From the NCBI GenBank assembly GCA_944388995.1, contig CALXKN010000006.1, forward strand, positions 1 to 64,000: DNA of 64,000 nucleotides, read 5' to 3'. Positions 46,651 through 63,312 of the stretch are shown piece by piece. The position numbers were made by a program, and so were the translations under genes. The first letter of the stretch is position 1. Each line of letters starts with the position of its first letter. This DNA comes from an uncultured Spirochaetota bacterium. GTDB taxonomy: Bacteria; Spirochaetota; Spirochaetia; JAFGXN01. A model generated the notes under the pieces. That model was not told the DNA's origin, did no database searches, and saw nothing but the letters and a program-made list of their open reading frames with translations.

Positions 46651-46870
46651 TTGGGCGCGTGCGCGCCGAGCGCGCACCGCGTCGACGGCGGGCGCGGTCT
46701 GCCTTCCGGCAGACGGCCTTGCGGCCCCCGCCGCGCCGCTCGCGCCTTCGTCTGCGGCGGATTTCTCCGGCGGACCGGCCGCGGCAAAAGAATGCGGCTG
46801 CACTTCGGCGGATCAGCGGGTCTTTAACGCTGTATTCTGCGCCTTTTATTGCAATTTTTGTTCCCGTCCG
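46651..46870 (-). repeat. Structured intergenic repeat, copy 4 (divergent, minus strand)
   Basis: On the minus strand it begins with ACGGGAACAAAAATTGCA and AAAAGGC...GCGTTAAAG (46869 downward), matching the start of copy 2. It then has GAAGGCGCGAG (46748 region), three GC hairpins (GGCCGCAAGGCC; GTCTGCC/GGCAGAC; GCGCGC/GCGCGC) and the shared end CGCGCCCAAAA. The core is too diverged to align base by base. The unit is inverted relative to copy 1, about 57 bp away. The interval 46607-47287 contains no credible gene. Confidence 0.6.
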
Positions 46871-46926
46871 AGCAGAAATGTTTTAACATCCTGTTTATTG
46901 AAATACAACAAACCGCTCCTTTGCCG

Positions 46927-47275
46927 GCGGAAACAAATGTTGCAGAAAAGGCATAAAATACTGCACTAAAAGGCGCCGGATTCGCAAAAGCGCCCCAAAA
47001 CCCCCGCCGAAGTCAAAACGCCGCGTTAAAAACGGCCGATCCGCCAAAGACACAAAATCCTGCCGAAGTCAGAATACTGCGTTGGAGGCGGCGGATCCGA
47101 AAAGGGGGCGCACGCTTTCGAAGGCGCGAGGGATTGGAGCGGAAATGAGCTGCCGACGGAGAGATGGCGCAGGGCAAAGCGGCAGCTTTGCTTTGGGTAA
47201 AGGCGCGGGAGGCTGCGAATTGCAGCGGAAAGCCCGGTACGCGCCGCTTGCGGCGCGCACGCGCCCGAAAAAAGA
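46927..47275 (+). repeat. Structured intergenic repeat, copy 1
   Basis: It consists of three degenerate ~57-bp direct repeats (about 46936-47110, consensus around CTGCCGAAGTCAGAAT..TGCGTT..GGCGGCGGATCC) followed by a core (47121-47275). The core contains GGGATTGGAGCGGAAATGAG, identical in copies 1, 2 and 3. Hairpin GCAAAGC/GCTTTGC (47174 region) and hairpin GCGCCGC/GCGGCGC (47241-47256), then CGCGCCCGAAAAAA. Its 3' end faces the 3' end of the gene at 47288, 12 bp away. Confidence 0.85.
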
Positions 47276-47287
47276 CTGAAGCTGCTT

Positions 47288-48256
47288 TTACTTTTTCTTT
47301 AGTAAAAATACGGTCGCTTTTTCGCGATAATTTCCGGTTTTCGAGTAAACGCACTCGTAACCGGTTAGAATGTCATTCCAAATACCCGACGGATCTTCGG
47401 CTGCCGGCAGCGTTTTCGGCAGTTCGGGCGTTTTAAACGCGCAGACAATCCACTGCGGCGGGTTTGAAAGAAACGCCGCGCGTTCCTCGGCGGCCGCTTC
47501 GGGATTGAATTTCAGATGAATCGGAATAAAAAAACGGTTTTGCGGCGTTGCCATAAGTTCTTGCGAAAAAAATCCGATTATTACCTTTGATCCGGTATTA
47601 AACGACCAAATTTTCGGGCGATCTGCCTCCGGAATGATCTCCGCCATATCGTCCATGACGGAAACGAAAAACGCATTCTCGTTTTTCACCTGAAGCTGCG
47701 GCGCGCTGAAATCGATAAAACAGACAAGTCTCCCTGCATTCCCCCGAATCAGCCAAGCCGAAAACGGTACAAACAGCAGTAATGTCAATAAGACGGCTAA
47801 GCTTTTTTTGGGAACAGAGAAAATAATATTGAAATCAAGCAGAAGCAACGGAATGACAGTCCAATAATAATACCAATGCAAACCGCCTCCCATTGTCAGG
47901 GCGGCCGACACCAGACCCGTTACAACCGGAAACCTCTCCGTCCGTCTGTATCTGATGACGTCAAAAAAAAGAACCGCAAACGGAACCGCCAGCTGCGCAA
48001 TGCGAATCAGCGCATTTTTCAGCGAATGCTTATCCGCCGCATACAGAAAGTTGTGAATGTACGAACCGTAAAAGAATTCCGAAAGCGCACCGTTAAGACC
48101 GAAATAAAGCAGAATTGGAACGGCAGTCAGTGCCCATCCCAACAAAAATAAAGCAATGTTCAGCGGCAGCTGCTTCTGCTGCTTTTTGAGAATCAGAAAC
48201 GCCGCAAAACCGATCATCATGCCGCCAATCAGAGCGCCGTCGTTCAGCCGTTTCAT
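47288..48256 (-). pseudogene. C-terminal remnant of a polytopic membrane glycosyltransferase-like protein
   Basis: A 322-residue open frame with about seven hydrophobic helices (about 8-190), then a soluble C-terminal domain. The pattern WALTAVPILLYFGLNGALSE and GGLHWYYYWTVIPLLLL resembles the second half of GT39/ArnT-like lipid-linked sugar transferases; the N-terminal catalytic half with its DD/DE motif is missing. The frame begins at ATG 48256 exactly where a GT2 gene breaks off, so it looks like the product of a deletion rather than an intact gene. It may still be translated (GAGGAGG lies 15 bases upstream). Family assignment is tentative. Confidence 0.55.
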
Positions 48257-48326
48257 AAAAAACCGGCAGCGCCTCCTCTTCGTTAAAACAGGGGACCACG
48301 AGAGAAAGGATCGGTTTAGGGTTCAT
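48243..48326 (-). pseudogene. GT2 glycosyltransferase fragment (first 28 codons)
   Basis: ATG 48326 has a good Shine-Dalgarno (GGGAGGA) and overlaps the end of gtrA by 11 bases, as in intact gtrA-gtrB operons. The 28 codons MNPKPILSLVVPCFNEEEAL... PVFYETAE are a perfect start of a GT2/DPM1-type bactoprenol glycosyltransferase. After that, similarity stops and the sequence runs into the membrane-protein remnant in another frame. Some 300 codons are missing, so the gene is destroyed. Confidence 0.75.
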
Positions 48327-48735
48327 GTCTTTCATCCTCCCGAAAGGCAAAATAACGCTGTCCGAAGTAGTTCAGAGCAGTGAAGACGATCATGCCCAGC
48401 GCCAGCGCCGCGTTGCCGCGAAACGAGGCAGAAAACCCGCTCAAAAGCCATTCCGTCAGCGGTTTCGCCGCTCCGTAAGCGGCAAAATAACAAACCGCAA
48501 TGACAGCGATAAAACGCACGGCAGGACGCCAGCCGCGGCTTGTATTTCCGAATGTAAACCGTTTGTTCAGCACATAGGCGAGAAGACTTCCGACGATGTA
48601 GTTTGCCGACGACGAAAACCAATACGGACAGTGCGCCGCATTGTAAAGAAGAAACATCAGCGTCGCCCCGACAAGCGTATTGAGCGCGCCGACGGCAAGA
48701 AATTTAATCAGTTTCCGATCTGCCCAAGAAAACAC
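48316..48735 (-). CDS. gtrA: GtrA-family membrane protein
   Basis: A 139-residue membrane protein with four TM helices (about 12-35, 40-60, 78-98, 110-130), typical of GtrA-like proteins thought to flip undecaprenyl-phosphate-linked sugars. The start region KLIKFLAVGALNTLVGATLM is the usual N-terminus, and YRVGS-like SANYIVGSLLAYVLNKRFTF is present. GTG 48735 has no Shine-Dalgarno; TATAAT ends 6 bases upstream. Its glycosyltransferase partner, which should follow, is deleted (48243-48326), so the protein may be an orphan. Expression may vary through the G tract in its promoter. Confidence 0.85.
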   Translation of the reverse strand: MFSWADRKLIKFLAVGALNTLVGATLMFLLYNAAHCPYWFSSSANYIVGSLLAYVLNKRFTFGNTSRGWRPAVRFIAVIAVCYFAAYGAAKPLTEWLLSGFSASFRGNAALALGMIVFTALNYFGQRYFAFREDERHEP

Positions 48736-48740
48736 GGGCT

Positions 48741-48749
48741 ATTATATCA
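48741..48749 (-). promoter_or_regulatory. Extended -10 promoter of gtrA
   Basis: Minus strand: TGA-TATAAT, a perfect extended -10 (48741-48749). The -35 position at 17-bp spacing (48764-48769) falls inside the interrupted G tract, so no -35 box is present. Confidence 0.6.
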
Positions 48750-48754
48750 CACAC

Positions 48755-48770
48755 GGGGGGGAGGGGGGGG
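48755..48770. repeat. Interrupted poly-G tract in the gtrA promoter
   Basis: Plus strand: seven G, one A, eight G. On the gtrA strand this is a C tract occupying the -35 region and part of the spacer, eight bases from the -10 box. Length changes here would move upstream sequence relative to the -10. Confidence 0.85.
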
Positions 48771-48792
48771 TACTTAACCGAAATTTACAGTC

Positions 48793-48822
48793 AAAAAAAA
48801 AAAACCGCCTCAAAGGAGGCGG
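48793..48822 (-). terminator. Terminator after the amidohydrolase gene
   Basis: Minus strand: 7-bp stem CCGCCTC / GAGGCGG with a CTTT loop followed by twelve T residues, 20 bases after the stop codon. Confidence 0.9.
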
Positions 48823-48842
48823 AAGAATGCCGAACGAAAATT

Positions 48843-50531
48843 TCACTCTGTTTCGGAGGCAGAAAAAACCGTACTGCCGTCTTTAACGGTACGTATCACT
48901 TTAATAGTACGAATTTCTTCGGGCGCAATGGTCAGCGGGTTTTTGTCCAAAACGACAAAGTCGGCGCGTTTGCCGGGGCGAATCGAGCCTTTACTCTCCT
49001 CTTCACCGATTTGAAAAGCTGCTGACAACGTCATCGCTTTTAAGGCTTCCGCAGGGGAAATTCGCTCTTCCGGAGCGATAACAACCCCCGATTTCGTCTG
49101 ACGCACAGTCATGCACCACAACGATTCGATCATATTGGGAGCAACGACAGGTGAGTCCTGATGAACAGTCACCGCAACACCCGCTTTTAACGCCGTCGCA
49201 GCAGCGCTGATATGTGAGCCGCGTTCGTTGCCGAGATTCTTCAAATGAACGTCTCCCCAGTAATAAATATGCGCGGGAAACATCGACGCAATCAGTCCGA
49301 GCTCAGCCAAATCGGCAAACTGCTGCGGCCGAACGATTTGCGAGTGAACCATCACGGAGCGGTGAAAATCGCCGACGCCCTCCGCGCGCAGCTGTTTGTA
49401 AACGCGAATCAGTTGATCGGCAGCGGCGTCTCCATTGCAGTGAGCCTGCAGCGGCAGACCTTGAGCAGCCGCCGTGCGGGCAAAAGCAGTGATGGTTTCA
49501 TCGTTATCAATCGGATAGCCGCAATAATTCGGATCGGCTTCGTTCCCGGAGCGCGCACCCGGAACAGTCAAGTACGGTTCGGAAAGCCACGCCGTCCGTC
49601 CCTGAGGAGAGCCATCAAGGAAAATTTTATATCCGCCGATTTTAAAACGATTGAGATAGCGCCCCAATCGCTCGGGGTGAGCCTGTGCTAAACCGGAAGC
49701 GTTCTTTAAATCGACGTAACCGACAATATCCATGACAAGAGCTTCTTTTTCAGCGGCTTCAGCGAGAAGTTCATACTCTTTTTCTTTCAGCAGAGAATCC
49801 TGTGCCGTCGTGAAACCTTGCGACAGATAAATCTGCTGCGCTTTCCGCATCAATTCGATGGGATCAGTGTCCGAAGGAGGAACTTGAGAAGCATAACCCA
49901 AAAACGCGGTTTCTTCCATATAACCGGTCGGATTGCCCTGCGCGTCACGGGCGATAACGCCGCCTTCCGGAGGCTGTGTTTGAGCCGTTACGCCGAAGAG
50001 GGTCAATGCCTTTGAATTAAAAACGCCCATATGCCCGGAAGCATGCGTAATAATAATCGGCCGCTCTGTTGAGACACGATCCAGCACCTCTTTTGTCGGA
50101 TGGGCTTTTTCTTTCAGATTGTTGTTATCATAACCAAAACCGACAATCCAACCCTCCTTCGTGTCGGGATTCTCCTTCGCATAAGCGGTCAGAATCGAAA
50201 CAATGTCGTCGAACGATTCGGCTGACGCAAGCTGCGCAATCGTTAAAATTTGAACGTACTGAGAAAGATGGCTGTGACCGTCGATAAAACCGGGCAAAAG
50301 CGTCGCGCCGTTCAAATCGATGCGTTCTGTTTTCTTCGTACACAGTGACTGCATCTCTTCATCGGTACCGATATGCGCAATCACACCGCCGCGAACGAAA
50401 ACCGCCTCAGCTGTCGGCCGGCTCTCTTCCATTGTTAAAACCGTTCCGTTGTAAAACAGAACCTCTTCCTTCGGTTTTTCACAGCCGCAAAGCAAAACCG
50501 CAAACAAAACCGCCGTTATTATTCTTTTCAT
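48843..50531 (-). CDS. Amidohydrolase-family lipoprotein (YtcJ-like)
   Basis: A 562-residue metal-dependent hydrolase of the amidohydrolase 3 group (YtcJ / N-substituted formamide deformylase-like). It has an unusual lipoprotein signal: MKRIITAVLFAVLLCGC with lipobox LLCGC, placing it at the cell envelope. Metal motifs: LPGFIDGHSHLS (HxH, about residues 80-91), AHCNGDAAAD (about 364), MVHSQIV (about 392) and HQDSPV (about 464), the usual set for the TIM-barrel. ATG 50531 with AAAGGAGA upstream. Natural substrate unknown. Followed by a strong terminator. Confidence 0.88.
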   Translation of the reverse strand: MKRIITAVLFAVLLCGCEKPKEEVLFYNGTVLTMEESRPTAEAVFVRGGVIAHIGTDEEMQSLCTKKTERIDLNGATLLPGFIDGHSHLSQYVQILTIAQLASAESFDDIVSILTAYAKENPDTKEGWIVGFGYDNNNLKEKAHPTKEVLDRVSTERPIIITHASGHMGVFNSKALTLFGVTAQTQPPEGGVIARDAQGNPTGYMEETAFLGYASQVPPSDTDPIELMRKAQQIYLSQGFTTAQDSLLKEKEYELLAEAAEKEALVMDIVGYVDLKNASGLAQAHPERLGRYLNRFKIGGYKIFLDGSPQGRTAWLSEPYLTVPGARSGNEADPNYCGYPIDNDETITAFARTAAAQGLPLQAHCNGDAAADQLIRVYKQLRAEGVGDFHRSVMVHSQIVRPQQFADLAELGLIASMFPAHIYYWGDVHLKNLGNERGSHISAAATALKAGVAVTVHQDSPVVAPNMIESLWCMTVRQTKSGVVIAPEERISPAEALKAMTLSAAFQIGEEESKGSIRPGKRADFVVLDKNPLTIAPEEIRTIKVIRTVKDGSTVFSASETE

Positions 50532-50592
50532 AAGGAATCTCCTTTCTTATCATAGCGCAATCCGAAATGAAAAGAAAGCCCCTCGAAATAAC

Positions 50593-51669
50593 TCAATCGG
50601 CTGCTTCAATGGGGGCGGAGAAAGCGCTGTCCCGTTTCTGATCCTGTTTTTGCGCATACATCCGACAATCAGCCTCATGTACAAGCATGTAAACGGAACC
50701 GCCGCCGAATGCAGAGCCGACCGCATAAGAAATCGCTGTTTCGTCGGGATTATTGTCATTTTCACGGCGGAGAGCGTCATCAATCGACGTTAAAAGCCGG
50801 CGGAACTCCGTTTCATTCTTTTTTTCGGCAATCAGAAGAAACTCGTCGCCTCCGTTGCGGCTGATAAACACGTGCGGATCATTGAATCGGGTCAATACTT
50901 CAGCAAAACGACGGATAAGATCATCTCCGGCGCTGTGGCCGAAGCGGTCGTTAACGGCTTTAAGGTTGTTTAAATCAAAAATTGCCGCACCGATATGATT
51001 GGACGAAGCACCGCCAAGCGCCATCATGTAACGGTCGGCAGCATAGCGATTCTGCAGCCCGGTCAAACCGTCACGGAATGCCAGAGAACCAAGTTCCTTT
51101 ATTTGACGGGAAGTGAGAAGCAATTCAAAAAAAGCCAAAATGACAAGAAAGACCAAAATACCGAACAGCAGCGACAGATACGTTTTAATTCGTTCCGACA
51201 GCGATTCGGAATAGATCTGCAATCGGTTGACCAAGTCATCGGAAAGTTTGAAATACGACTCCGAATCATCGATAAGAATCTTCTCGTCATCGCCCGTTGC
51301 CTCTTTTTTGTTGAAACGTTCTATATCTCCGCTCAATCGATCCCAAACGAGTTTCAGTTCATCGACAAGGTCTCTGTAATCATCTTTGGAAATCACCGGA
51401 AACTGCGAAACTCCCTCTTCCGAATGAATTTGAGAAATCATGTCGGAGACAAAACTCTTCAATTCTTCGTTTTTTTGATCTGCCAGCTCCTGCTTTACCA
51501 ACCGTTGGGAAGAACAGCGAAAAAATCCGGCTTGATTGATTGCTGCCGCTGCCTGAGCCTGATCTGTAGCCAACTGCCAAATTCGAAGAAACAAAACAGT
51601 CGCCGAAAAGAGCAGCGCAATACGCAGCAAATGAAACGCCAACCGCCGTCTGAAAATCGATTTCACCAT
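50593..51669 (-). CDS. Membrane diguanylate cyclase with PilJ-like sensor
   Basis: A 358-residue protein. TM helix about 10-32; periplasmic sensor about 33-155 containing INQAGFFRCSSQRLVKQEL, which resembles the N-terminal AGRQRMLSQR motif of PilJ/NarX-type sensors; TM helix about 155-175; then a GGDEF domain with DGLTGLQNRYAADRY, FDLNNLKAVNDRFGHSAGDD and active site SRNGGDEFLLI (about 279-289). All catalytic residues are present, so it should make cyclic di-GMP. I chose ATG 51669 (AAAGG eight bases upstream); ATG 51696 is an alternative. Divergent from rpsB, upstream of the amidohydrolase gene. Confidence 0.87.
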   Translation of the reverse strand: MVKSIFRRRLAFHLLRIALLFSATVLFLRIWQLATDQAQAAAAINQAGFFRCSSQRLVKQELADQKNEELKSFVSDMISQIHSEEGVSQFPVISKDDYRDLVDELKLVWDRLSGDIERFNKKEATGDDEKILIDDSESYFKLSDDLVNRLQIYSESLSERIKTYLSLLFGILVFLVILAFFELLLTSRQIKELGSLAFRDGLTGLQNRYAADRYMMALGGASSNHIGAAIFDLNNLKAVNDRFGHSAGDDLIRRFAEVLTRFNDPHVFISRNGGDEFLLIAEKKNETEFRRLLTSIDDALRRENDNNPDETAISYAVGSAFGGGSVYMLVHEADCRMYAQKQDQKRDSAFSAPIEAAD

Positions 51670-51770
51670 GATTTTGCCTTTCAAGTCAAATGACATTATC
51701 AATATAATTAACTTTCAGGGCATTTTCAAGTCTTATTCACAGAAATCCTCGGTAAAGGAGCAAAAAAGAC

Positions 51771-51799
51771 TTTACAAAAGAACAAATCCGAAGTATAAT
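51771..51799 (+). promoter_or_regulatory. Promoter of the rpsB operon
   Basis: -35 TTTACA (51771-51776), 17-bp spacer, -10 TATAAT (51794-51799). The ~68-base leader contains a hairpin GCCGG / CCGGC (51842-51860) immediately before the GGAGG at 51864. Confidence 0.8.
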
Positions 51800-51873
51800 T
51801 TTGACAAATAAACTCCGCGAAAGCGTGTAACAGTGAAGGAAGCCGGACAAAAGAGCCGGCACAGGAGGCAAAA

Positions 51874-52776
51874 GTGGCAGTGGTAACAATGAAAAACCTG
51901 CTCGAATCGGGTGTTCATTTCGGACACCAAACCAAAAGATGGGATCCCCGTATGGCGAAGTACATTTACACTCAGCGCAACGGTGTTCACATCATCGACC
52001 TGAAAAAGACGCTTCTTTCAGTTAAAGACGCCTACGAAATCGTGCGCAAAACGGTTTTGGAAGGAAAAAGCGTCCTTTTCATCGGCACCAAAAAACAGGC
52101 TCAGGAAGCCATCGAAAAAGAAGCCAAACGGTGCGGAATGTACTACGTCAACAATCGCTGGCTCGGCGGTATGCTGACAAACTTCGCAACCATCAAAAAA
52201 TCGATCGTTCGTCTGAAAAAAATCGAAAAAATGGAAGTCGACGGAACCTTCGATTCTCTCACAAAAAAAGAAATTTCTCTTTTAAACAAAGAACGCGCTA
52301 AATTAGAGAAAAACCTCGGCGGAATCAAAGAAATGAAAGATTTGCCGGGAATCGTATTCATCATCGACACGAAGGAAGAGGCGATTGCGGTCGCCGAAGC
52401 AAAAAAATGCGGTATTCCGATTGTCGCCGTCGTCGACACCAACTGCAATCCGGAAGGCATCGATTATCCGATCCCCGGAAACGACGATGCTATCCGCGCG
52501 ATTTCTCTGTTCACATCGGTCATCGCAAACGCAGTCATTGAAGCGGATAACGAAGTCGGTCTGCAAATCATCGAAAACATTCAGGACGACGAAATGACAA
52601 ACGAGTCGATTCTGGCAAAAGCTGAAGAAGAAAAAGAAGCGGCGATTAAAGAAGCGGTTGAAGCGGACGAAGCTAAAAACTTTAAAGCTAAACCGAAGAA
52701 ACCGGCAAAAGAAGAAGGCGAAAAATCGACCGAAACAGCCGTCGAATCCGAAGCTGAAACTTCAAAGGAGGAATAA
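51874..52776 (+). CDS. rpsB: 30S ribosomal protein S2
   Basis: A 300-residue S2 protein of the small ribosomal subunit. The family pattern is intact: [20 protein letters not shown] at the start, [26 protein letters not shown] and [20 protein letters not shown]. The last ~65 residues are a Lys/Glu/Ala-rich tail not found in E. coli S2, probably disordered. GTG 51874 with GGAGG upstream (MAVVTMKNL). First gene of rpsB-tsf-(terminator)-frr-uppS-cdsA-dxr. Confidence 0.97.
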
Positions 52777-52777
52777 A

Positions 52778-53620
52778 ATGGCAAACGTAAATCCGAGTGA
52801 CGTCAAAAAACTGCGCGACGCAACCGGCGCCGGAATGTTGGACTGCAAAAACGCATTAATCGAAGCCGGCGGCGACTTTGAAGAGGCGCAGAAAGTATTG
52901 CGCAAAAAAGGATTGGCCGCCGCTACTAAACGCGAAGGCCGCGCCACAACGGAAGGCCGGCTTTTCATTGCTATCCGCGGAGAAAAAGCTGCCGTCTGCG
53001 AGCTGACGTGCGAAACGTATTTTGTGGCAGGTAATGAAAAGTTCAAAGCTTTCGGCGAAGAAATCGTCAACATGATGCTTGACGCCGAAACGGAAGAGTT
53101 GACGCCGGAAATCGCCGATAAAGTAAAAGAAGCGATCAGCATCATCAAAGAAAACATGACGCTGAAGCGGCAGAAACTGTTTAAGCTGACCGCCGCCCAA
53201 AAGGCGTTCGGTTACTCCCACGACGGGCAGATTGCCTCTGTCGTTGTTTTGGAGAGCGACAATCCCGCCGCTTTTGAAGCTGATGCCGTTAACGAATTCG
53301 GAAACGACTTGGCGATGCACATTGCCGCATTTCACCCCCGTTTTATCGACGAAAACTCCGTTACACAGAAATTCAAAGACGACCAAATGGAAGTTTTTGC
53401 CGCACAGTCAGAAAATCTGAATAAACCGGCTGATGTGCTGCAGAAAATCATGGCCGGCAAATTGAATAAAATCTACTCCGAAGTGTGTCTGACCAAACAG
53501 CCGTTTGTAAAAGACGACAAACAATCCGTCGAAAAAGTGATGGCAGCCGTCGCCAAACAGGTCGCCGCTTCGTTGAAAATCGCCGATTACGTTTATTACA
53601 AAGTCGGCATTGACGAATAA
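52778..53620 (+). CDS. tsf: Translation elongation factor Ts
   Basis: A 280-residue guanine nucleotide exchange factor for EF-Tu. N-terminal UBA-like domain VKKLRDATGAGMLDCKNALI followed by DFEEAQKVLRKKG; then the dimerisation/core region including VCELTCETYFVAGNEKFKAF. The ATG at 52778, one base after the rpsB stop, has AAAGGAGGAA upstream; in-frame codons before it overlap rpsB and are not EF-Ts. The C-terminus is complete. Confidence 0.97.
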   Translation: MANVNPSDVKKLRDATGAGMLDCKNALIEAGGDFEEAQKVLRKKGLAAATKREGRATTEGRLFIAIRGEKAAVCELTCETYFVAGNEKFKAFGEEIVNMMLDAETEELTPEIADKVKEAISIIKENMTLKRQKLFKLTAAQKAFGYSHDGQIASVVVLESDNPAAFEADAVNEFGNDLAMHIAAFHPRFIDENSVTQKFKDDQMEVFAAQSENLNKPADVLQKIMAGKLNKIYSEVCLTKQPFVKDDKQSVEKVMAAVAKQVAASLKIADYVYYKVGIDE

Positions 53621-53626
53621 CCGTTT

Positions 53627-53654
53627 CGGCTGCGGTTTGCCGCAGCCGTTTTTT
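53627..53654 (+). terminator. Rho-independent terminator between tsf and frr
   Basis: A 9-bp stem CGGCTGCGG / CCGCAGCCG with a TTTG loop, followed by TTTTTT. It ends two bases before the frr Shine-Dalgarno (CAGGAG), with no room for a separate promoter, so it probably reduces rather than blocks expression of frr and the genes beyond. Confidence 0.85.
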
Positions 53655-53666
53655 CAGGAGTGAACC

Positions 53667-54224
53667 ATGATCGCAGAGATTAAAGCCGACAGCGAAGAGA
53701 GGATGAAGAAGAGCGCCGCCGCATTGGAAGACGAATTCAATCGATTACGAACCGGCCGCGCTTCGGCAGCACTGGTCGATAAAATTCAAGTTTCCTACTA
53801 CGGTGCCGCGACGCCGCTGAACCAAGTTGCCTCAATTTCCGTTCCGGAAGCGCGGTTGATTGTCATTCAGCCGTGGGACAAAAACGTTTTACCGGAAATC
53901 GAGAAAGCAATTCAAAAATCCGAGCTGAATCTGAATCCGAACAACGACGGAAAAGTTATTCGCATCAATATTCCCGCTTTGACCGAAGAACGCCGCAAAG
54001 AACTGGTAAAAGGCGCCAAAGCATCAGCTGAAAACGCGCGGGTAGCCGTGAGAAACATCCGCCGCGACGCAATCGATAAGCTCAAAAAAGAGCAAAAGAA
54101 CGGTGAATTGACGGAAGATGAGCTGAAAGCGGCTGAAACCGATATGCAGACGCTAACGGATAAATACATCGGCGAAGTCAACAAAATTCTCGACGCCAAA
54201 GAAAAAGAGATTATGGAAATCTGA
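53667..54224 (+). CDS. frr: Ribosome recycling factor
   Basis: A 185-residue factor that splits the post-termination ribosome together with EF-G. Typical RRF sequence: [59 protein letters not shown], and [22 protein letters not shown] 53667 with CAGGAG upstream. Length is that of the family. Downstream uppS begins after one intergenic base. Confidence 0.97.
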
Positions 54225-54225
54225 A

Positions 54226-54930
54226 ATGGCGGATGAAAAGCAGCCGGATCAAATGTGCCGCCACATTGCCGTCATCATGGACGGCAACGGACGGTGGGCC
54301 AAACAACGCGGAAAAATTCGCAGTTTCGGACACAAGGAAGGATTAAAAGCCACTAAACGACTGCTCCATTACGCGTCTGAACGAGGATTAAAATACCTAA
54401 CACTGTACGCGTTCTCAACCGAAAACTGGAAACGCGCGGAAGAAGAAGTCTCTTATCTGATGAATTTAATCCACCTTCATCTGCGCAAAGAGATGAAATT
54501 CTACAAAAAAAACCATATCCGGCTGCGGTTCATCGGTGATTTATCGCGGCTCAAGCCGTCGCTGCAGGAAGAAATGCGCTCCGTCGAGCGGGATACAGCC
54601 TCTTATGACGGTTTGACCGTACAGCTGGCAATCAATTACGGAGGCCGCGACGAGCTGCGCCGAGCCGTCCAGAAGCTGATCGATTCGGGCAAACAGGAAA
54701 TCACGGAAGCCGATATTGAAGCCGAACTGGATACAGCCGGCATTCCCGATCCTGATTTAATCATCCGTACCGCCGGAGAACAACGATTGAGCAACTTTTT
54801 AATGTGGCAAAGCGCTTACAGCGAATTTTGGTACACGCCGAAACTGTGGCCCGATTTCGGTTCTGAAGATTTTGATGAGGCGGTCGCCGCCTTCTTTCGC
54901 CGCGACCGCCGCTACGGAGGGATCAAATGA
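54226..54930 (+). CDS. uppS: Undecaprenyl diphosphate synthase
   Basis: A 234-residue cis-prenyltransferase making the C55 lipid carrier for peptidoglycan and glycan export. The catalytic P-loop-like HIAVIMDGNGRWAKQRG is at about residues 13-29, LTLYAFSTENWKR at about 60-72, and the C-terminal signature DLIIRTAGEQRLSNFLMWQ followed by YSEFWYTPKLWPDF. ATG 54226; a weak Shine-Dalgarno suggests translational coupling to frr. It overlaps cdsA by four bases (ATGA). Confidence 0.97.
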   Translation: MADEKQPDQMCRHIAVIMDGNGRWAKQRGKIRSFGHKEGLKATKRLLHYASERGLKYLTLYAFSTENWKRAEEEVSYLMNLIHLHLRKEMKFYKKNHIRLRFIGDLSRLKPSLQEEMRSVERDTASYDGLTVQLAINYGGRDELRRAVQKLIDSGKQEITEADIEAELDTAGIPDPDLIIRTAGEQRLSNFLMWQSAYSEFWYTPKLWPDFGSEDFDEAVAAFFRRDRRYGGIK

Positions 54931-55796
54931 AAGAGATGACCGCCCGTATTCTTCTGGGAGTGATCGCAATTCCGATTTTGTTGGTGATCCTCCTGTTTCC
55001 GCTGCCGTTCAACGCCGCCGTTAACGCAGTCATTATGGCTTTCACGGCGCTCGCCGGAATCGAAACTGCGCGTTTGACAGAAACACGACTCACCCGCCTC
55101 AACAAAGCGGCCGCCGTGTTTTGCGCCGTTCTGCCGCCGCTTTCTGTCTTCTGTTTTCTGTTTTTACCGGATACAGTTGCTGCACTGACAGTCGCCGCCA
55201 TTCTTATTCTCGCTCCAACGCTTCTCATCGGACGGGAAGCATTCAGCCGCAGCGCCGAGAAATGGAACAACTCACTGGAAAGAATCGCCGGATACGCCTT
55301 TATTTTGCTTTACATCGGCGGACTGTCGGCCGCCCTTACCGGCTTTCAGTTCCTCTCTCGGTTTGTCCCCGACGATAATCCGGGATTGATTTACCTCATT
55401 TACCTGCTGATGATTTTCACAAATGACACCGCCGCCTACTTCACCGGCGTAGCCGTCGGCCGTTTTACTCCGCATCCGGCGCCGATCAGCCCCAAAAAAA
55501 GCCTTGCCGGTTTCATCGGCGGAGCTGTCGGCTGCCTTGCCGTTTCCGTCGCCGCCTTTTTTATTCTGCCGCAGCTGTTTGAAAACAGTATCCTCCGGGC
55601 GCTGACCGTCGGAGCCGTATTGGCGTTCGCCGGCATTGTCGGCGATTTGGTTGAATCGGCGTTTAAACGCAGCGCCGGCGTCAAAGACAGCGGCCGTCTG
55701 ATGGGAGGCCGCGGCGGCGTTCTTGACTCCATCGACTCCGTCCTCTACGGAGCGCCGTTTTTCCTCGTTCTGCTGGCGGGAATTCAGCTGATATGA
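54927..55796 (+). CDS. cdsA: Phosphatidate cytidylyltransferase
   Basis: A 289-residue membrane enzyme forming CDP-diacylglycerol from phosphatidate and CTP, upstream of all phospholipids including the cardiolipin made by cls. About eight TM helices. The CDS signature near the C-terminus (S-x-x-K-R-x4-K-D ... D-x-x-D) is present as SAFKRSAGVKDSGRLMGGRG followed by GVLDSIDS. The canonical PGHGG-x-x-DR reads GGRGG-x-x-DS here: the usual His is Arg and the usual Arg is Ser, while the metal-binding Asp residues are kept. Four-base ATGA overlaps on both sides. DTAAYFTG and GRFTPHPAPISPKKSLAGFI also fit the family. Confidence 0.93.
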   Translation: MKEMTARILLGVIAIPILLVILLFPLPFNAAVNAVIMAFTALAGIETARLTETRLTRLNKAAAVFCAVLPPLSVFCFLFLPDTVAALTVAAILILAPTLLIGREAFSRSAEKWNNSLERIAGYAFILLYIGGLSAALTGFQFLSRFVPDDNPGLIYLIYLLMIFTNDTAAYFTGVAVGRFTPHPAPISPKKSLAGFIGGAVGCLAVSVAAFFILPQLFENSILRALTVGAVLAFAGIVGDLVESAFKRSAGVKDSGRLMGGRGGVLDSIDSVLYGAPFFLVLLAGIQLI

Positions 55797-56884
55797 AAAA
55801 AGTGATCGTCCTCGGCGCGACCGGCACCATCGGCCTCAATACGCTTTCGGTCATCGAGCACCTCGGCAGCGACTGGCAAGCAGACCTAATCACCGCATTT
55901 TCCCGCAAAACCGAACTGGAGCAGCTGGCCCGACAATACAACGCCCGAACCTTCACCACCGACTCCGAAACGATGCTGAAAGAAATTCGAGAAAGTGACG
56001 CCGACATCGTCGTCAACGGCATCGCCGGAGCCGCCGGACTGCTGCCCTCATTTGAAACTGTGCGCTGCGGCAAACGGCTGGCGCTGGCCAACAAAGAAAC
56101 CATCGTTATGGCAGGAGCCTTGCTGAAAACCGAAGCAGCGCGCAGCGGAGCCGAAATCATTCCCGTTGACTCCGAACATGCGGCTCTCTTCGAACTGCAG
56201 CGCACGGCCGCGCCGAATCAAATCCGCAAACTGATCATTACCGCATCGGGCGGCGCCTTCCGCGACACGCCTCTCGAAGAACTGACACACGTTACCCCCG
56301 AACAGGCGCTGCATCATCCGACATGGAAAATGGGGCCCAAAATCACTGTCGACTCCGCCACCATGGCAAACAAAGGATTGGAAGTGATAGAAGCGGTCTA
56401 TCTCTTCGACCGCCGTCCCGACGAAATCGAGGTTCTCATTCACCCGCAAAGCCGCATTCACGCGTTGATACAAACCGCTGAAGGAACCTTTACCGCTCAA
56501 ATCTCAGCTCCTGACATGCGCATTCCGATTCAAAACGCTCTCACCTACCCCGAAAAAGCTGCAGCTCCGTCTCCCGACACCGACCTCACTGCCGAGGCGC
56601 TGACCTTTACCCGCCCCGACCCGCGCAAATACCCGATGCTGCCGCTGGCATTCCGCGCCGCCAAATCCGGTCTCTCTGCCGCCATAACCTACAACGCCGC
56701 CAACGAAATCGCCGTTGCCGCCTTCCTCGGACACCGGCTGCCGTTTCTCTCCATCGCCCGACTCACCGAAGCCGTCCTCAACAAACCGCTGCCGCCCGCT
56801 CCCGCTTCGCTTGAAGAAGTACTGACCGTCGACGCCTGCGCCCGCACCGCCGCCGACCAACTGCTCGCATCAAAAGCGTTTTAA
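55793..56884 (+). CDS. dxr: 1-deoxy-D-xylulose 5-phosphate reductoisomerase
   Basis: A 363-residue NADPH enzyme making MEP, the first committed step of the isoprenoid pathway that also uses ispG (45572). NADPH-binding GATGTIGLNTLSVI at residues 8-21, ALANKETIVMAG (about 95-106), metal/substrate segment DSEHAALFE (about 125), ASGGAFRD (about 150) and HPTWKMGPKITVDSATMANK (about 176-195) are intact. Four-base ATGA overlap with cdsA. In T. pallidum rseP follows, from memory; here a repeat element follows instead. Confidence 0.96.
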   Translation: MKKVIVLGATGTIGLNTLSVIEHLGSDWQADLITAFSRKTELEQLARQYNARTFTTDSETMLKEIRESDADIVVNGIAGAAGLLPSFETVRCGKRLALANKETIVMAGALLKTEAARSGAEIIPVDSEHAALFELQRTAAPNQIRKLIITASGGAFRDTPLEELTHVTPEQALHHPTWKMGPKITVDSATMANKGLEVIEAVYLFDRRPDEIEVLIHPQSRIHALIQTAEGTFTAQISAPDMRIPIQNALTYPEKAAAPSPDTDLTAEALTFTRPDPRKYPMLPLAFRAAKSGLSAAITYNAANEIAVAAFLGHRLPFLSIARLTEAVLNKPLPPAPASLEEVLTVDACARTAADQLLASKAF

Positions 56885-56895
56885 CTGAATTTATT

Positions 56896-57043
56896 TGGGC
56901 GCGCGCCCCTGCGGGGCGCCGGGCTTTCCGCTGCAATTCGCGGCTTCCCTCCGCCTTTACAAAGGCAAAGCTTCCGCTTTGCCCTGCGCCTTTTTTCCGT
57001 CGGCCGCTCATTTCCGCTCCAATCCCTCGCGCTTTCGGTTTGT
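56896..57043 (-). repeat. Structured intergenic repeat, copy 3
   Basis: Core only, on the minus strand, without the ~57-bp direct repeats. It carries GGGATTGGAGCGGAAATGAG, GGCCGACGG, the hairpin GGCAAAGC-GGAA-GCTTTGCC, GCGAATTGCAGCGGAAAGCC, and the terminal hairpin GCGCCCC/GGGGCGC, ending CGCGCCCAAATAAA. The 3' end is 11 bp from the dxr stop codon and faces it. Its 5' end is next to the terminator of the following gene. Confidence 0.85.
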
Positions 57044-57072
57044 TTGCGGACGACTGCGGTCAAACCGCTGCG

Positions 57073-57101
57073 AAAAAAAAACGGAGCGCCGAAGCGCTCC
57101 G
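57073..57101 (-). terminator. Terminator after the InlB-repeat lipoprotein gene
   Basis: Minus strand: 8-bp stem CGGAGCGC / GCGCTCCG with a TTCG loop, followed by nine T residues, 10 bases after the stop codon. Confidence 0.9.
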
Positions 57102-57111
57102 CGTAAGCGGT

Positions 57112-59559
57112 TTACATTCTCTTCGGAGAGAGGTAAATCCGTTTTCCGACAGGAATTTCATTCACGGTAATCGTACACTCAACCTTCGGACTTGCCTTTC
57201 CGCTCGGCACAATCTCAAGTGTGTAATCACCGGACGTCACATCATAAATGTTAAATTCTATCGAAAAGAGACCGTCCGCTTTTCGACTTGTCGTAGGATA
57301 CACACTGTCGACAGCACTGCCGCCTTTTGTTACTGTCACATCAAAATCGGTAAAAATACCGAAAATCCGCTCAATCGGAACAGAAACCGAGACATATGAA
57401 CTTTCACTCTCCCGGAACAGGGCAATTTGCGCCGTTTCATTTGACGGGTACAGACAAAACTCGTCGGCAGGAACCGTCGCGCTCACCGAAAATTTCTCTC
57501 CCTCAACCGTTGCCTCGACCGTCAGTTCATCGCCGGGACCGCAGACGTAATTGTATTCGTCGCCGTAAAGATAATCAAACGTGACGGTTTGTTTTTCGTC
57601 GTCAACGGAGCCATATTCATCTGTTGGAGCATTGTTTACAGATAAGGCCTTCACATCGAGATAAACGGACTCTCGGTTGTGTGTATATGGAACGGTCAGA
57701 ACGTAATGGTTATCTTCAACGGTAACCGCCGCTTCCCCGAAGGCAAATTCCAGCGGCGCCTGCGTTTCTTCCCCCTTTACGGTAAAAGAAGTTTCGCTCT
57801 TCACCGCGCCGTCGACAACAAACTGCAGGCGGTACTCTCCGGGAGCCAAAGGATATTCTTCTCCGGAATCCAGATCACCAAAATAGAAGTATCTCAACTC
57901 GCCAAAATATGTTGAAAAAATCTGTTTTTCTCCGGCTTTGTTCACTACAGAAAAATTTTCCGTATCCAGTGAAACAGTTCCCGGATCGGCAATTGCTAGC
58001 GAAGATGAGTCAGAATCTAAAATTTTTAAATCCAATTCCGCCGGAACTTCTTTCCAAATCAAAGAAACCTCCACCTCCTCCTCCGGCATGACGAATGCGT
58101 ATCGCGTATAGTGCAGAACGAAATCGTATTCATCATAATAATATGAATCAACGGTCCGGGTGACATTTACCGTCTGTCCGCTCTTTGTTTTTTTAATCTG
58201 AATGCCGTCGAGCCCCCACGCTTTTCCTTCTAAAGGCGGTTTAGTACACATTAGACGAAGCATGTCATCTGAGAAAAGGATTTCATCACCCGGAAGTGCG
58301 CTTTCCAGATCATCGGCTACACCGTTGCCGTCGGCATCGACATCGGGATCATCAGCAACTATAATCTTGTAATAATCGCTCATGCGAGCGCCGTTGAGGT
58401 TCCATTTGACGGCAACCGGTGTTTTCCATACAGCGGTAAAAGTTATGTTCGGCGCGGATGCCGGTACGGTGAACGTTTCACCGGATTCGTAAACGGTTCC
58501 GTTCCATTCCCAACCGAAAAGTCGAATCTCTTCATTGTGTGAAACAGTATCCCAGTCAGACGGAAGAGGCAGCTCATTACCCACCCATAAACTCAACGGC
58601 TGCGAATAGTCGGGTGACAAATAGGAATTCCACTCCGCGCCGGGGTTTACCTCCGTATTCAGATCGAATTTCACCGTCGACTGCTGTCTTTCTTTGAGAA
58701 CGGCGTAAAAAACGTAACTGTAGCTGTCGGCCGGCAATTCCGAGCTCGAAATTGTTTTGCCCGGAAGATACTCTGCCTCCGCCGCGCTTTCCGTCAGCGC
58801 CCACCCCAGAAAGTCGGCGGTAATATCAGAGTATTCTCTTTCCTTCACATCGGGCATCAGGATTGATTGAGTATGTTCATTAATCGTATACGACCAGCTC
58901 TCCGCATCAACATCCCAACCGCTATTCCCATCGATTTCAAACTGAACGGTTTTTGTCTTCGGTTTGGTAGGAAGATAAGCGGCGTAGAAAGTCAGCGGCG
59001 TACCGTCAACTTTGATCGCTGTTCCCGGTCCGAGAATGTCGCCGCTTTCATCGGCCGTCTTCCGCCAGCCGGCAAAGTATTTTCCGCTCTCTTTAACAGC
59101 AAAAAGGTCATCGCCGTCTGCCAGAACGATATAACCGTCTTGGTTCAGCGCGTCAACCGTGACCGTTTTGCCGTTTTCCACCATGGGATTGTAGGTCACC
59201 GTCATGCGGCCGCGCTCCCAGATTGCATAATAAGTATAAGGACTCTTGGAATAAACAAGTTCCTTTTCTCCCGGTTGAGAAAGTTGATCAGAAGACGTAG
59301 CATTTTTGTTCGTCGACCAGCCGACAAACGCATAGTTTTCCCTTGTAAACGGATTCTCGGGAAAGGTAAACTCTTCGGCAAAACGGACGGTGTAGTCAAA
59401 TGCACTGCCGCTGCCGCCGTTGGGTTCAAAACGGTAAACGATTCCTTGAACGCTTCCATCCGTGTCAGTCGGATTTTCCGGAACTACAGGCGGCGGCGGA
59501 GGACAGGCAACTGCCGTCAACAACGTAAAAATTAAAGTGAATAAACGGTATTTTTCCAT
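57112..59559 (-). CDS. Large surface lipoprotein with InlB-B-type repeats
   Basis: An 815-residue predicted lipoprotein. The signal MEKYRLFTLIFTLLTAVAC is followed by a Pro-rich stretch. Residues about 40-400 hold several InlB B / Listeria-Bacteroides repeats, each ending in the tell-tale FVGWSTNKN or FAGWR... then YYAIW, FYAAY or FTAVW. A calcium-loop-like DVDADGNGVADD lies near residue 415. The C-terminal half is beta-sandwich-like and unassigned. Such repeats are typical of cell-surface adhesin-like proteins. ATG 59559 has AAGGAG upstream. The promoter abuts a very long interrupted G tract, so expression may be phase-variable. It has its own terminator. Confidence 0.8.
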   Translation of the reverse strand: MEKYRLFTLIFTLLTAVACPPPPPVVPENPTDTDGSVQGIVYRFEPNGGSGSAFDYTVRFAEEFTFPENPFTRENYAFVGWSTNKNATSSDQLSQPGEKELVYSKSPYTYYAIWERGRMTVTYNPMVENGKTVTVDALNQDGYIVLADGDDLFAVKESGKYFAGWRKTADESGDILGPGTAIKVDGTPLTFYAAYLPTKPKTKTVQFEIDGNSGWDVDAESWSYTINEHTQSILMPDVKEREYSDITADFLGWALTESAAEAEYLPGKTISSSELPADSYSYVFYAVLKERQQSTVKFDLNTEVNPGAEWNSYLSPDYSQPLSLWVGNELPLPSDWDTVSHNEEIRLFGWEWNGTVYESGETFTVPASAPNITFTAVWKTPVAVKWNLNGARMSDYYKIIVADDPDVDADGNGVADDLESALPGDEILFSDDMLRLMCTKPPLEGKAWGLDGIQIKKTKSGQTVNVTRTVDSYYYDEYDFVLHYTRYAFVMPEEEVEVSLIWKEVPAELDLKILDSDSSSLAIADPGTVSLDTENFSVVNKAGEKQIFSTYFGELRYFYFGDLDSGEEYPLAPGEYRLQFVVDGAVKSETSFTVKGEETQAPLEFAFGEAAVTVEDNHYVLTVPYTHNRESVYLDVKALSVNNAPTDEYGSVDDEKQTVTFDYLYGDEYNYVCGPGDELTVEATVEGEKFSVSATVPADEFCLYPSNETAQIALFRESESSYVSVSVPIERIFGIFTDFDVTVTKGGSAVDSVYPTTSRKADGLFSIEFNIYDVTSGDYTLEIVPSGKASPKVECTITVNEIPVGKRIYLSPKRM

Positions 59560-59577
59560 ATTATAACTCCTTAACGG

Positions 59578-59586
59578 AGTCTACCA
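59578..59586 (-). promoter_or_regulatory. Extended -10 promoter of the InlB-repeat lipoprotein gene
   Basis: Minus strand: TGG-TAGACT, an extended -10 (59578-59586; the hexamer matches four of six). It is separated by one base from the G tract, which therefore fills the whole spacer and -35 region. A 5-bp inverted repeat (ACTCC/GGAGT, 59566-59580) places part of the Shine-Dalgarno in a small hairpin. Confidence 0.45.
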
Positions 59587-59587
59587 C

Positions 59588-59630
59588 GGGGGGGGGGGGG
59601 GGGGGGGGAGGGGGGGGGGGGGGGGGGGGG
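59588..59630. repeat. Very long interrupted poly-G tract (G21-A-G21)
   Basis: Plus strand: 21 G, one A, 21 G, beginning 29 bases upstream of the lipoprotein ATG. It has the same G-run/A/G-run design as the tract in the gtrA promoter but is much longer. Exact length may be unreliable because such tracts are hard to sequence and assemble. Confidence 0.75.
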
Positions 59631-59706
59631 TCGAGAGGTTTTTGAAAAAAAGAGAAAATTTCAGAGAAACACCGGCGCACCGATCCGCCAAAGACCGTTC
59701 CCAAAC

Positions 59707-59990
59707 GGGAACAAAGGTTGCAGGAAAAGGCATAAAATATTGCGTTGAAGGCGGCGGATTCTCAAAAGCCCTGAAATTCTGCCGAAGTCAGAATGAGGCG
59801 TTAAAAGACGGCGGACCCGCAAACGGACGTCAGAGCCGCCGAAGGCGCGGGGGATTGGAGCGGAAATGAGCGGCCGACGGAAAGGCGGCGCGCGGCAAAG
59901 CGGGCAGCTTTGCCGCGGTTGAAGGTGCGGGAGGCCGCGAATTGCAGCGGAAAGCCCGGCGCCCCGCCTGCGGGGCGCGCGCCCTGAAAA
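59707..59990 (+). repeat. Structured intergenic repeat, copy 2
   Basis: It starts ACGGGAACAAAGGTTGCAGG and has two degenerate ~57-bp direct repeats (59721-59830), with a further partial unit (CGATCCGCCAAAGAC) near 59681. The core (59840-59990) carries GGGATTGGAGCGGAAATGAG, the hairpin GGCAAAGC/GCTTTGCC with a loop one base longer than in copies 1 and 3, and the terminal hairpin GCGCCCCGC/GCGGGGCGC. It ends GCGCCCTGAAAAAAA. Its 3' end faces the 3' end of carB, about 58 bp away. The whole interval 59560-60048 contains no credible gene. Confidence 0.85.
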
Positions 59991-63291: not shown

Positions 63292-63312
63292 GGACACCTC
63301 CTAAATCATTTC

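What the first reader, a model, noticed from the sequence alone, without database searches (positions are those of the whole stretch)
46651..59990. A family of structured intergenic repeats with pairing-preserving changes in the hairpin arms
Four copies occur within 13 kb, all between genes: 46651-46870 (-), 46927-47275 (+), 56896-57043 (-) and 59707-59990 (+). Three share a ~150-bp core with the identical stretch GGGATTGGAGCGGAAATGAG and GCGAATTGCAGCGGAAAGCC. Near the end is a hairpin whose arms differ but still pair: GCGCCGC/GCGGCGC (copy 1), GCGCCCCGC/GCGGGGCGC (copy 2), GCGCCCC/GGGGCGC (copy 3). A second hairpin, GCAAAGC/GCTTTGC, keeps its stem while the loop varies (GGCA, GGGCA, GGAA). 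All copies end in CGCGCCC plus an A-rich stretch. Paired changes in both arms suggest selection on structure, either RNA or single-stranded DNA. I do not recognise a known family. It could be a MITE-like mobile element, a REP-like site or a small RNA.
Basis: partly seen in the sequence, partly recalled or inferred. Interest (0 to 1): 0.75.

Follow-up and report, generated by a model that had tools for sequence, protein, structure and literature searches.

The report
Scattered foldable repeats related to Flavo-1
The window holds three copies of a 140-base intergenic repeat that folds into a three-armed shape and belongs with a bacterial motif listed since 2010 as an RNA of unknown role (Flavo-1); several lines of evidence suggest it acts, and spreads, as folded DNA rather than as RNA.

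Summary
The repeat is real. Copies 2-4 are one family (47123-47265 +, 56898-57033 -, 59844-59983 +); the genome holds 25 full copies, a genome of the same genus 20 matches, one weak. Copy 1 (46653-46746 -) has another core but the same closing stem, side hairpin and tail. The core is that of Rfam Flavo-1 (RF01705), below its cut-off here (21-27 bits) but above it in relatives; 'no known family' is wrong. New: a closing stem and a second, freely varying hairpin form a three-way junction with strong covariation. Found in 53 of 296 genomes of the window's phylum and 45 of 296 of Flavobacterium's, some with 150 or more copies. Variable arms lack the G.U excess of RNA controls, orientation to genes and GC skew is even, and the 3' end often abuts stop codons. 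I favour a dispersed DNA element read as one folded strand. No enzyme, empty site or transcript was shown; a RAYT is absent from many hosts, though near some copies. On three Moraxella plasmids all 7 full copies found lie on the inferred transferred strand.

The parts
47123..47265 (+). Flavo-1-like element, copy 2: closing stem GGCGC/GCGCC, long arm with Flavo-1 core, side hairpin GTACGCGCCGC/GCGGCGCGCAC, tail CGAAAA
56898..57033 (-). Flavo-1-like element, copy 3; its 3' end lies 13 nt after ORF 55793-56884 (+); closing stem AGCGC/GCGCC has one A.C mismatch
59844..59983 (+). Flavo-1-like element, copy 4; its 3' end faces the stop of ORF 60049-63297 (-), 65 nt away
46998..47099 (+). two units of a separate ~46-bp repeat upstream of copy 2; related sequence also lies upstream of copy 4 and of several other genome copies
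   Evidence: last part by eye

Best explanation
The repeats are members of a broad element class, of which Rfam Flavo-1 is one branch, that is dispersed through genomes as DNA and recognised as ONE folded single strand: a 5-bp closing stem, a long arm with a pseudo-symmetric purine-rich core (GGG-A-TT-GNA-GC-GGA-AAT against ATT-GNA-GC-GGA-AA-G-CCC, the mismatches purine-purine apart from the free N, by eye), and a freely exchangeable side hairpin. Shown: the family, the fold by covariation, the distribution, the gene-end bias and the even orientation to genes and GC skew. Inferred: that the folded strand is DNA (bare at replication, repair or conjugation), that a trans-acting protein binds the core, and that copies multiply by copying or insertion near gene ends. 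The protein is unknown; many hosts have no RAYT.
For: (1) Fold: covariation 0.422 vs 0.134 shuffled, 0/500 (39 rows, helix 1 chosen for exact pairing) and 0.378 vs 0.125, 0/500, on 67 distinct rows found afterwards with the model and aligned to it. Closing stem without that choice: 87 of 95 divergent elements have the exact 5-nt partner, against 231 of 1615 for other elements' types; own-genus 36 of 40 against 8 of 80. (2) DNA-like arms: isolated mismatches in the variable arms are G.U 8, A.C 10 over 2659 Watson-Crick pairs, against 43:15 in 464 terminator-like hairpins and 9:1 in 47 tRNAs; Fisher p 0.025 and 0.041. (3) One strand matters in the core: helix 3 has G.T 29, A.C 2 (A5+A6). (4) Even orientation: 18 sense, 17 antisense, 9 convergent, 2 divergent; GC skew 25:21 (46 elements in stretches of 11 Bacteroidota genomes); sense:antisense in the other two sets 12:16 and 7:6. 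(5) The 3' end lies within 20 nt of a facing stop codon in 23 of 76, the 5' end in 6 of 74, p 0.0008. (6) Copy number runs from 1 to 150 or more in nine genomes. (7) Between G000 and G001 one orthologous slot holds different elements in different orientation. (8) In F. psychrophilum Flavo-1 hits lie 'indistinctly' sense or antisense of transcribed regions and many are outside them (PMC9723704, passages read).
Against: No empty site, target duplication, enzyme or transposition event was shown. The arm counts are small and the p values modest. Counted on model-fitted alignments the side hairpin shows G.T 29 against A.C 12, and helix 1 in A5 G.T 4 against A.C 1, the opposite; such alignments favour G.T. 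Strict Watson-Crick pairing of helices 2 and 4 in A3 is partly built in by the search pattern. Few divergent-gene sites (2 of 46) is not general: 20 of 62 and 6 of 33 in the other sets (crude ORF calling). The own set contains orthologous pairs. Purine mismatches of this kind also occur in RNA (recalled). No RNA data of this organism were at hand, so transcription is not excluded; some 5' transcribed regions of F. psychrophilum do coincide with Flavo-1 hits.
Confidence: 0.53

Rival explanations
1. It is a true structured RNA (Flavo-1 RNA as filed in Rfam): a small RNA or an mRNA element bound by a protein through the purine-rich internal loops.
For: Rfam files Flavo-1 as sRNA. G.T strongly exceeds A.C in core helix 3, 29:2. 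Several F. psychrophilum 5' transcribed regions coincide with Flavo-1 hits (PMC9723704).
Against: Even orientation to genes; no G.U excess in arms folded without G.U; the same paper finds hits in both orientations and many outside transcripts; copy number varies from 1 to 150 or more.
Confidence: 0.21
2. It is a single-strand DNA start or entry signal (like a primosome assembly site, plasmid ssi, or Frpo single-strand promoter) that became a chromosomal repeat in some lineages.
For: Moraxella MOBF plasmids: 7 of 7 full copies found lie on the inferred transferred strand in the leading region (of M. bovoculi's plasmid 32.4 of 50.3 kb was held). Three P. bifermentans plasmids each carry two copies pointing apart, 2.2-2.9 kb. 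One copy in a contig with a filamentous-phage-type (Ace-like) protein, on the strand of that gene. The boxes contain NAGCGG; the phiX174 F-G intergenic hairpin carries AAGCGG.
Against: The Moraxella copies are partly near-identical duplications and oriT is inferred, so few independent events. R2 does not match phiX174 (3.7 bits) or ColE1 (9.4 bits). AAGCGG itself is in only 58 of 139 elements. No lagging-strand bias in chromosomes (25:21). Rare in viral contigs: 6, 2 and 1 stretches by three exact patterns.
Confidence: 0.13
3. REP/BIME-type repeats mobilised, at least in some hosts, by a RAYT (Y1 transposase).
For: Short, intergenic, foldable, multi-copy. Of 12 Y1_Tnp loci from element-bearing genomes, 3 have an element-like match within 1.5 kb: G271 at 136 bp (55.8 bits), G031 at about 0.65 kb (28.5 bits), G299 at about 1.2 kb (28.0 bits), more than I would expect by chance. 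Two high-copy genomes have Y1_Tnp hits (G302 two, G305 one).
Against: No Y1_Tnp in the own genome nor in 8 of 17 others, among them F. caeni with 83 copies and G304 with 150 or more. Of 30 loci found with the G271 RAYT protein only G271 itself has an element within about 1.5 kb, though many of those genomes have no element.
Confidence: 0.08
4. Passive repeats spread only by homologous recombination and duplication of gene ends, with no site-specific function.
For: Junctions between G000 and G001 switch flanks at elements; a 1.2-kb duplication carries an element (L006/L008).
Against: Compensatory change over two phyla and a conserved core need selection or a DNA correction process. Contig ends fall inside elements, so some junctions may be assembly artefacts.
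Confidence: 0.05

Closest known systems
Flavo-1 RNA, Rfam RF01705 (Weinberg 2010, PMC2864571; one table row seen)
   Same: Core GAUUGaAGCGGAAAU...AUUGnAGCGGAAAGC aligned end to end; 13 elements in 11 of 16 loci (Bacteroidota and viral) and 4 elements in 4 of 12 spirochaete loci pass the Rfam cut-off
   Different: Window copies score below the cut-off; their tip is longer and of another sequence; the closing stem and second hairpin are not paired in the 76-position Rfam model as printed; the RNA label is untested
REP/BIME repeats with RAYT (PMC3733652, PMC6006769 seen in listings only; rest recalled)
   Same: Intergenic, foldable, multi-copy
   Different: Larger, three-way junction; RAYT missing from many host genomes
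Integron attC sites
   Same: Would be a folded single-strand site
   Different: By eye no attC R-box motifs (recalled motifs) and no cassette array; not computed
Frpo/ssi single-strand promoters (PMC11541004, passages read)
   Same: Folded transferred strand in plasmid leading regions
   Different: No -35/-10 seen by eye in the core; conformance was not computed

Membership tests
Flavo-1 (RF01705) | Match to the covariance model over its full length | tested here: met
   Window 47118-47243, 1-76/76 at 21 bits; L021 27.4 bits; of ten own copies scanned only L021 reached E 1
Flavo-1 (RF01705) | Score at or above the gathering cut-off of 42 bits | tested here: not met
   No hit in the window; own genome best 27.4, sister genome none. 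Related loci with the same core pass. Hence: wider class, not filed as Rfam Flavo-1 itself
Flavo-1 (RF01705) | Acts as an RNA | not testable with these tools
   No RNA data at hand
REP/RAYT | RAYT (Y1_Tnp) in the genome | tested here: not met
   0 in G000; absent from 8 of 17 other genomes tried, two of them with 83 and 150 or more copies
REP/RAYT | RAYT gene flanked by the repeat | tested here: inconclusive
   3 of 12 Y1_Tnp loci have a match within 1.5 kb, two of them weak; 1 of 30 loci of the G271-type RAYT
MITE | Terminal inverted repeats | tested here: inconclusive
   5-bp closing stem only
MITE | Target-site duplication and empty site | tested here: inconclusive
   G000/G001 comparison gave no clean empty site
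Primosome assembly site | AAGCGG hexamer in a hairpin (recalled) | tested here: inconclusive
   58 of 139 elements have AAGCGG in a box; the first letter is free
Primosome assembly site | Same overall structure as the phiX174 or ColE1 site | tested here: not met
   R2 best 3.7 and 9.4 bits
Frpo | -35 and -10 boxes in the folded strand | not tested
   Looked at by eye only

The most novel reading that the evidence does not exclude
Flavo-1 has been misfiled as an RNA: it is a folded single-stranded DNA signal. The strand that folds is the one exposed when a conjugative plasmid enters a cell or when ssDNA phage DNA or a lagging strand is bare, and a replication or recombination protein loads there; some Bacteroidota and spirochaetes amplified it into a genome-wide repeat with exchangeable arms.
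Probability: 0.15. Interest if true: 0.85.

Novelty: new variant of a known kind. Interest (0 to 1): 0.55.

Why it matters
Flavo-1 was named in 2010; two searches of the paper library (4 and 9 papers listed) showed me no paper with a function for it. The report gives it defined ends, a second arm, a second core type, and a distribution over two phyla plus plasmids, and turns RNA-or-DNA into a question that one strand-specific RNA experiment plus one ssDNA binding assay can settle.

Tried and rejected
RAYT as the general partner: not supported, but 3 of 12 Y1_Tnp loci have a match within 1.5 kb, so it is kept as a rival; on rechecking I raised it from 0.05 to 0.08 and lowered the best explanation from 0.55 to 0.53 and the RNA rival from 0.22 to 0.21. 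Neighbouring transposase: ORFs of 122 loci were clustered; of nine proteins scanned from the larger shared clusters four hit families (two ABC transporters, DctM, a ParA-type ATPase), five hit none, none is a transposase. Replication-strand bias: the listing of one genome looked biased, but 46 elements with local GC skew gave 25:21. Avoidance of divergent (promoter) sites: true in one set only (2 of 46), not in the others (20 of 62, 6 of 33), so dropped. Integron array in a Treponema-like genome (G175): its eight matches are on one strand; the four in L262 lie in or beside tandemly repeated long ORFs. Synteny breaks at elements between G000 and G001 looked like recombination, but G001 contigs also start or end inside elements, so they are not used as proof. 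A 29-nt match on an Acinetobacter plasmid is not a full element. I first thought arms showed no wobble at all; model-fitted alignments gave G.T 29 against A.C 12 in the side hairpin, so the claim is kept to the folds without G.U. phiX174 and ColE1 do not match the model. Six typed core strings are in no paper of the library; a paper search for PriA and single-strand initiation found none.

Failed or wrong calls: 19, 26, 30, 42, 43, 49, 57, 60, 112, 132 (input errors; repeated in corrected or changed form, except 112 and 49's range, which were dropped); 16 and 91 were stopped by my script errors after printing the results used; 50 had a wrong index and was redone; 142 was this report in a wrong format.
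Full report
OBSERVATION. The three copies at 47118-47272 (+), 56891-57038 (-) and 59839-59990 (+) are one family (R1, 147.7-161.5 bits). A DNA search of the genome gives 30 matches: 25 long ones and 5 short ones, of which two lie in copies of the second type described below and one is the palindrome of a full copy. The covariance model R1 gives 25 in the own genome (G000), 20 in a genome of the same genus (G001; the last at 36 bits) and none in a third genome of the family. The window copies lie between the long ORFs. Ten places similar to it over 60 nt or more, some of them cut or variant, are in the held stretches of G000 and G001.

FOLD. Single-strand DNA folding gives a closed three-way junction in two of three copies tried (L010, L021; L006 folds otherwise at its minimum); z-scores -2.13, -4.03 and -1.46: an outer stem GGCGC/GCGCC, a long arm GGG-A-TT-...-GCGGCC with a tip hairpin GGCAAAGC/GCTTTGCC, and a side hairpin. 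In the divergent set the same plan recurs with quite different letters in tip and side arm. Core pairs change on both sides: GGG/CCC to GCG/CGC, CGG/CCG and CCG/CGG, and AAT/ATT to AAG/CTT (a few rows with an insert do not pair). On 39 chosen rows the covariation score is 0.422 against 0.134 for shuffles, 0 of 500; those rows were picked for an exact closing partner and by a pattern that fixes core letters, so helices 1, 2 and 4 lean towards pairing there. Two tests are freer of that: 87 of 95 divergent elements (of 135 with enough flank, 139 distinct) have an exact 5-nt closing partner, against 231 of 1615 for partners of other types; and on 67 distinct rows found afterwards with R2, though aligned to its structure, the score is 0.378 against 0.125, 0 of 500.

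WHAT IT IS. Rfam reports nothing at its cut-offs in the window except a tRNA. Below the cut-off, Flavo-1 (RF01705) aligns from its first to its last position at 47118-47243 with 21 bits and at one other copy with 27.4 bits (ten copies scanned; cut-off 42); it rings in 0 of 14 control genomes. In other genomes the link is plain: 13 elements in 11 of 16 loci (Bacteroidota and viral contigs) and 4 elements in 4 of 12 spirochaete loci pass the cut-off. The own-genome form therefore belongs to a wider class of which Rfam's Flavo-1 covers mainly the branch with a T-rich tip; I do not file it as Flavo-1 proper because the cut-off was tested and not met. Weinberg 2010 lists Flavo-1 under Bacteroidetes with the marks y, n, n (PMC2864571, one table row seen; column heads not read). 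A 2022 review names it among abundant sRNA families found by computation and gives no function in the passages seen (PMC9029176, two passages). In F. psychrophilum several 5' transcribed regions coincide with Flavo-1 hits, but hits lie in either orientation and many lie outside transcribed regions (PMC9723704, passages).

DISTRIBUTION. R2 at E 0.001: 53 of 296 genomes, 24 of 138 genera, of the window's phylum (Spirochaetota, inferred because a record titled uncultured Spirochaetes has the length of a G001 contig, L167); 45 of 296 genomes of the phylum of Flavobacterium caeni; both with stricter filters. Nine genomes reached through loci: 18, 83, 15, 42, 1, 150, 22, 150, 150 matches, 150 being the scoring limit. 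Full elements also occur on plasmids of Moraxella, Paraclostridium bifermentans, Phocaeicola and Bacteroides, and rarely in viral contigs: L181, L182, L183 and L452; L178-L180 and L451 gave no match.

RNA OR DNA. In the variable arms, folded without allowing G.U, isolated mismatches are G.U 8 and A.C 10 over 2659 Watson-Crick pairs; an earlier, overlapping set gave 3:4 in divergent and 1:5 in own-genus elements. Hairpins before T-runs in the same loci give 43:15 and tRNAs 9:1 (p 0.025 and 0.041). Core helix 3 differs: G.T 29, A.C 2. Against this stands the side hairpin counted on model-fitted alignments, 29:12, where the aligner itself prefers G.T. My reading: the core is read on one strand, the arms are DNA palindromes. 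Orthologous copies G001 C1:276619 and G000 C7:2060 differ in the side hairpin by two full compensatory changes and a CT to AG loop, as expected if arms turn over as DNA; selection on an RNA could give the same.

PLACE. Of 46 elements in stretches of 11 Bacteroidota genomes, 18 are sense and 17 antisense to both neighbours, 9 sit between convergent and 2 between divergent genes; GC skew of the stretch in element direction is positive in 25 and negative in 21. In the other sets divergent sites are common (20 of 62, 6 of 33). The 3' end faces a stop codon within 20 nt in 23 of 76 cases, the 5' end in 6 of 74; ORFs were called by a simple longest-frame rule and the own set holds orthologous pairs. 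In one orthologous intergenic site G000 has a Flavo-type element antisense to the left gene; G001 has the second type there and a Flavo-type element in the other orientation. No clean empty site was obtained.

PARTNER. The own genome has no Y1 transposase; nor have 8 of 17 other genomes tried, among them F. caeni (83 matches) and G304 (150 or more). Three of 12 Y1_Tnp loci have a match within 1.5 kb: G271 at 136 bp beside a RAYT-like ORF, and two weak ones farther off in G031 and G299. Of 30 loci found with the G271 protein only G271 has one. A RAYT may be an occasional partner, not the general one.

PLASMIDS. In three Moraxella MOBF plasmids R2 finds four, two and one full copies, plus a weak one at E 0.1. 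All lie between the T4CP/relaxase block and rep, and all point away from that block, which is the transferred strand if oriT lies where it does in R388-type plasmids (recalled). Several are near-identical duplications, so this is a handful of events. Three P. bifermentans plasmids carry two copies each pointing apart, 2.2-2.9 kb. One viral contig copy lies on the strand of an Ace-like minor head protein gene, a filamentous-phage mark (the meaning of Ace is recalled). This supports a single-strand DNA role without proving it.

VERDICT. A real, widespread, folded repeat; a new variant of the Flavo-1 kind; function most likely at the DNA level; mechanism of spread and partner unknown.

Noticed in passing
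window 46653-46746 (-); other places: Second core type (GGCGCGAGCGGCRCGGCGGG...CCCGCCG) with the same closing stem, side hairpin and AAAA tail; two places on G000 C17 show a third variant with closing stem GGCGTC/GACGCC.
   Followed up: partly
window 46998-47043, 47054-47099 and about 59707-59830: A ~46-bp repeat (GCCGAAGTCAGAATACTGCGTTGAAGGCGGCGGAT...) lies upstream of several elements in this genome.
   Followed up: no
window about 59588-59630: Long run of G, nearly pure, between two ORFs; possible phase-variable tract or assembly artefact.
   Followed up: no
G175 loci L262-L264: Eight diverged copies on one strand of a 2.8-Mb genome; those in L262 lie in or beside tandemly repeated long ORFs.
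   Followed up: partly
L076, L144 (L125, L168 show its right end): An ~80-bp sequence (CCGGGGGCGCGATAGCGCC...) interrupts the element core at GGGATT/ATTG in several copies of one spirochaete genome, like a nested insertion.
   Followed up: no
G271 locus L274:4599-4695 and 4831-5361 (-): RAYT-like ORF (HYHLL motif) 136 bp from a diverged element whose core mismatches have become paired.
   Followed up: yes
G001 contigs C5 (start) and C13 (end): Contigs of the sister genome start or end inside elements, so these repeats seem to break short-read assemblies.
   Followed up: partly
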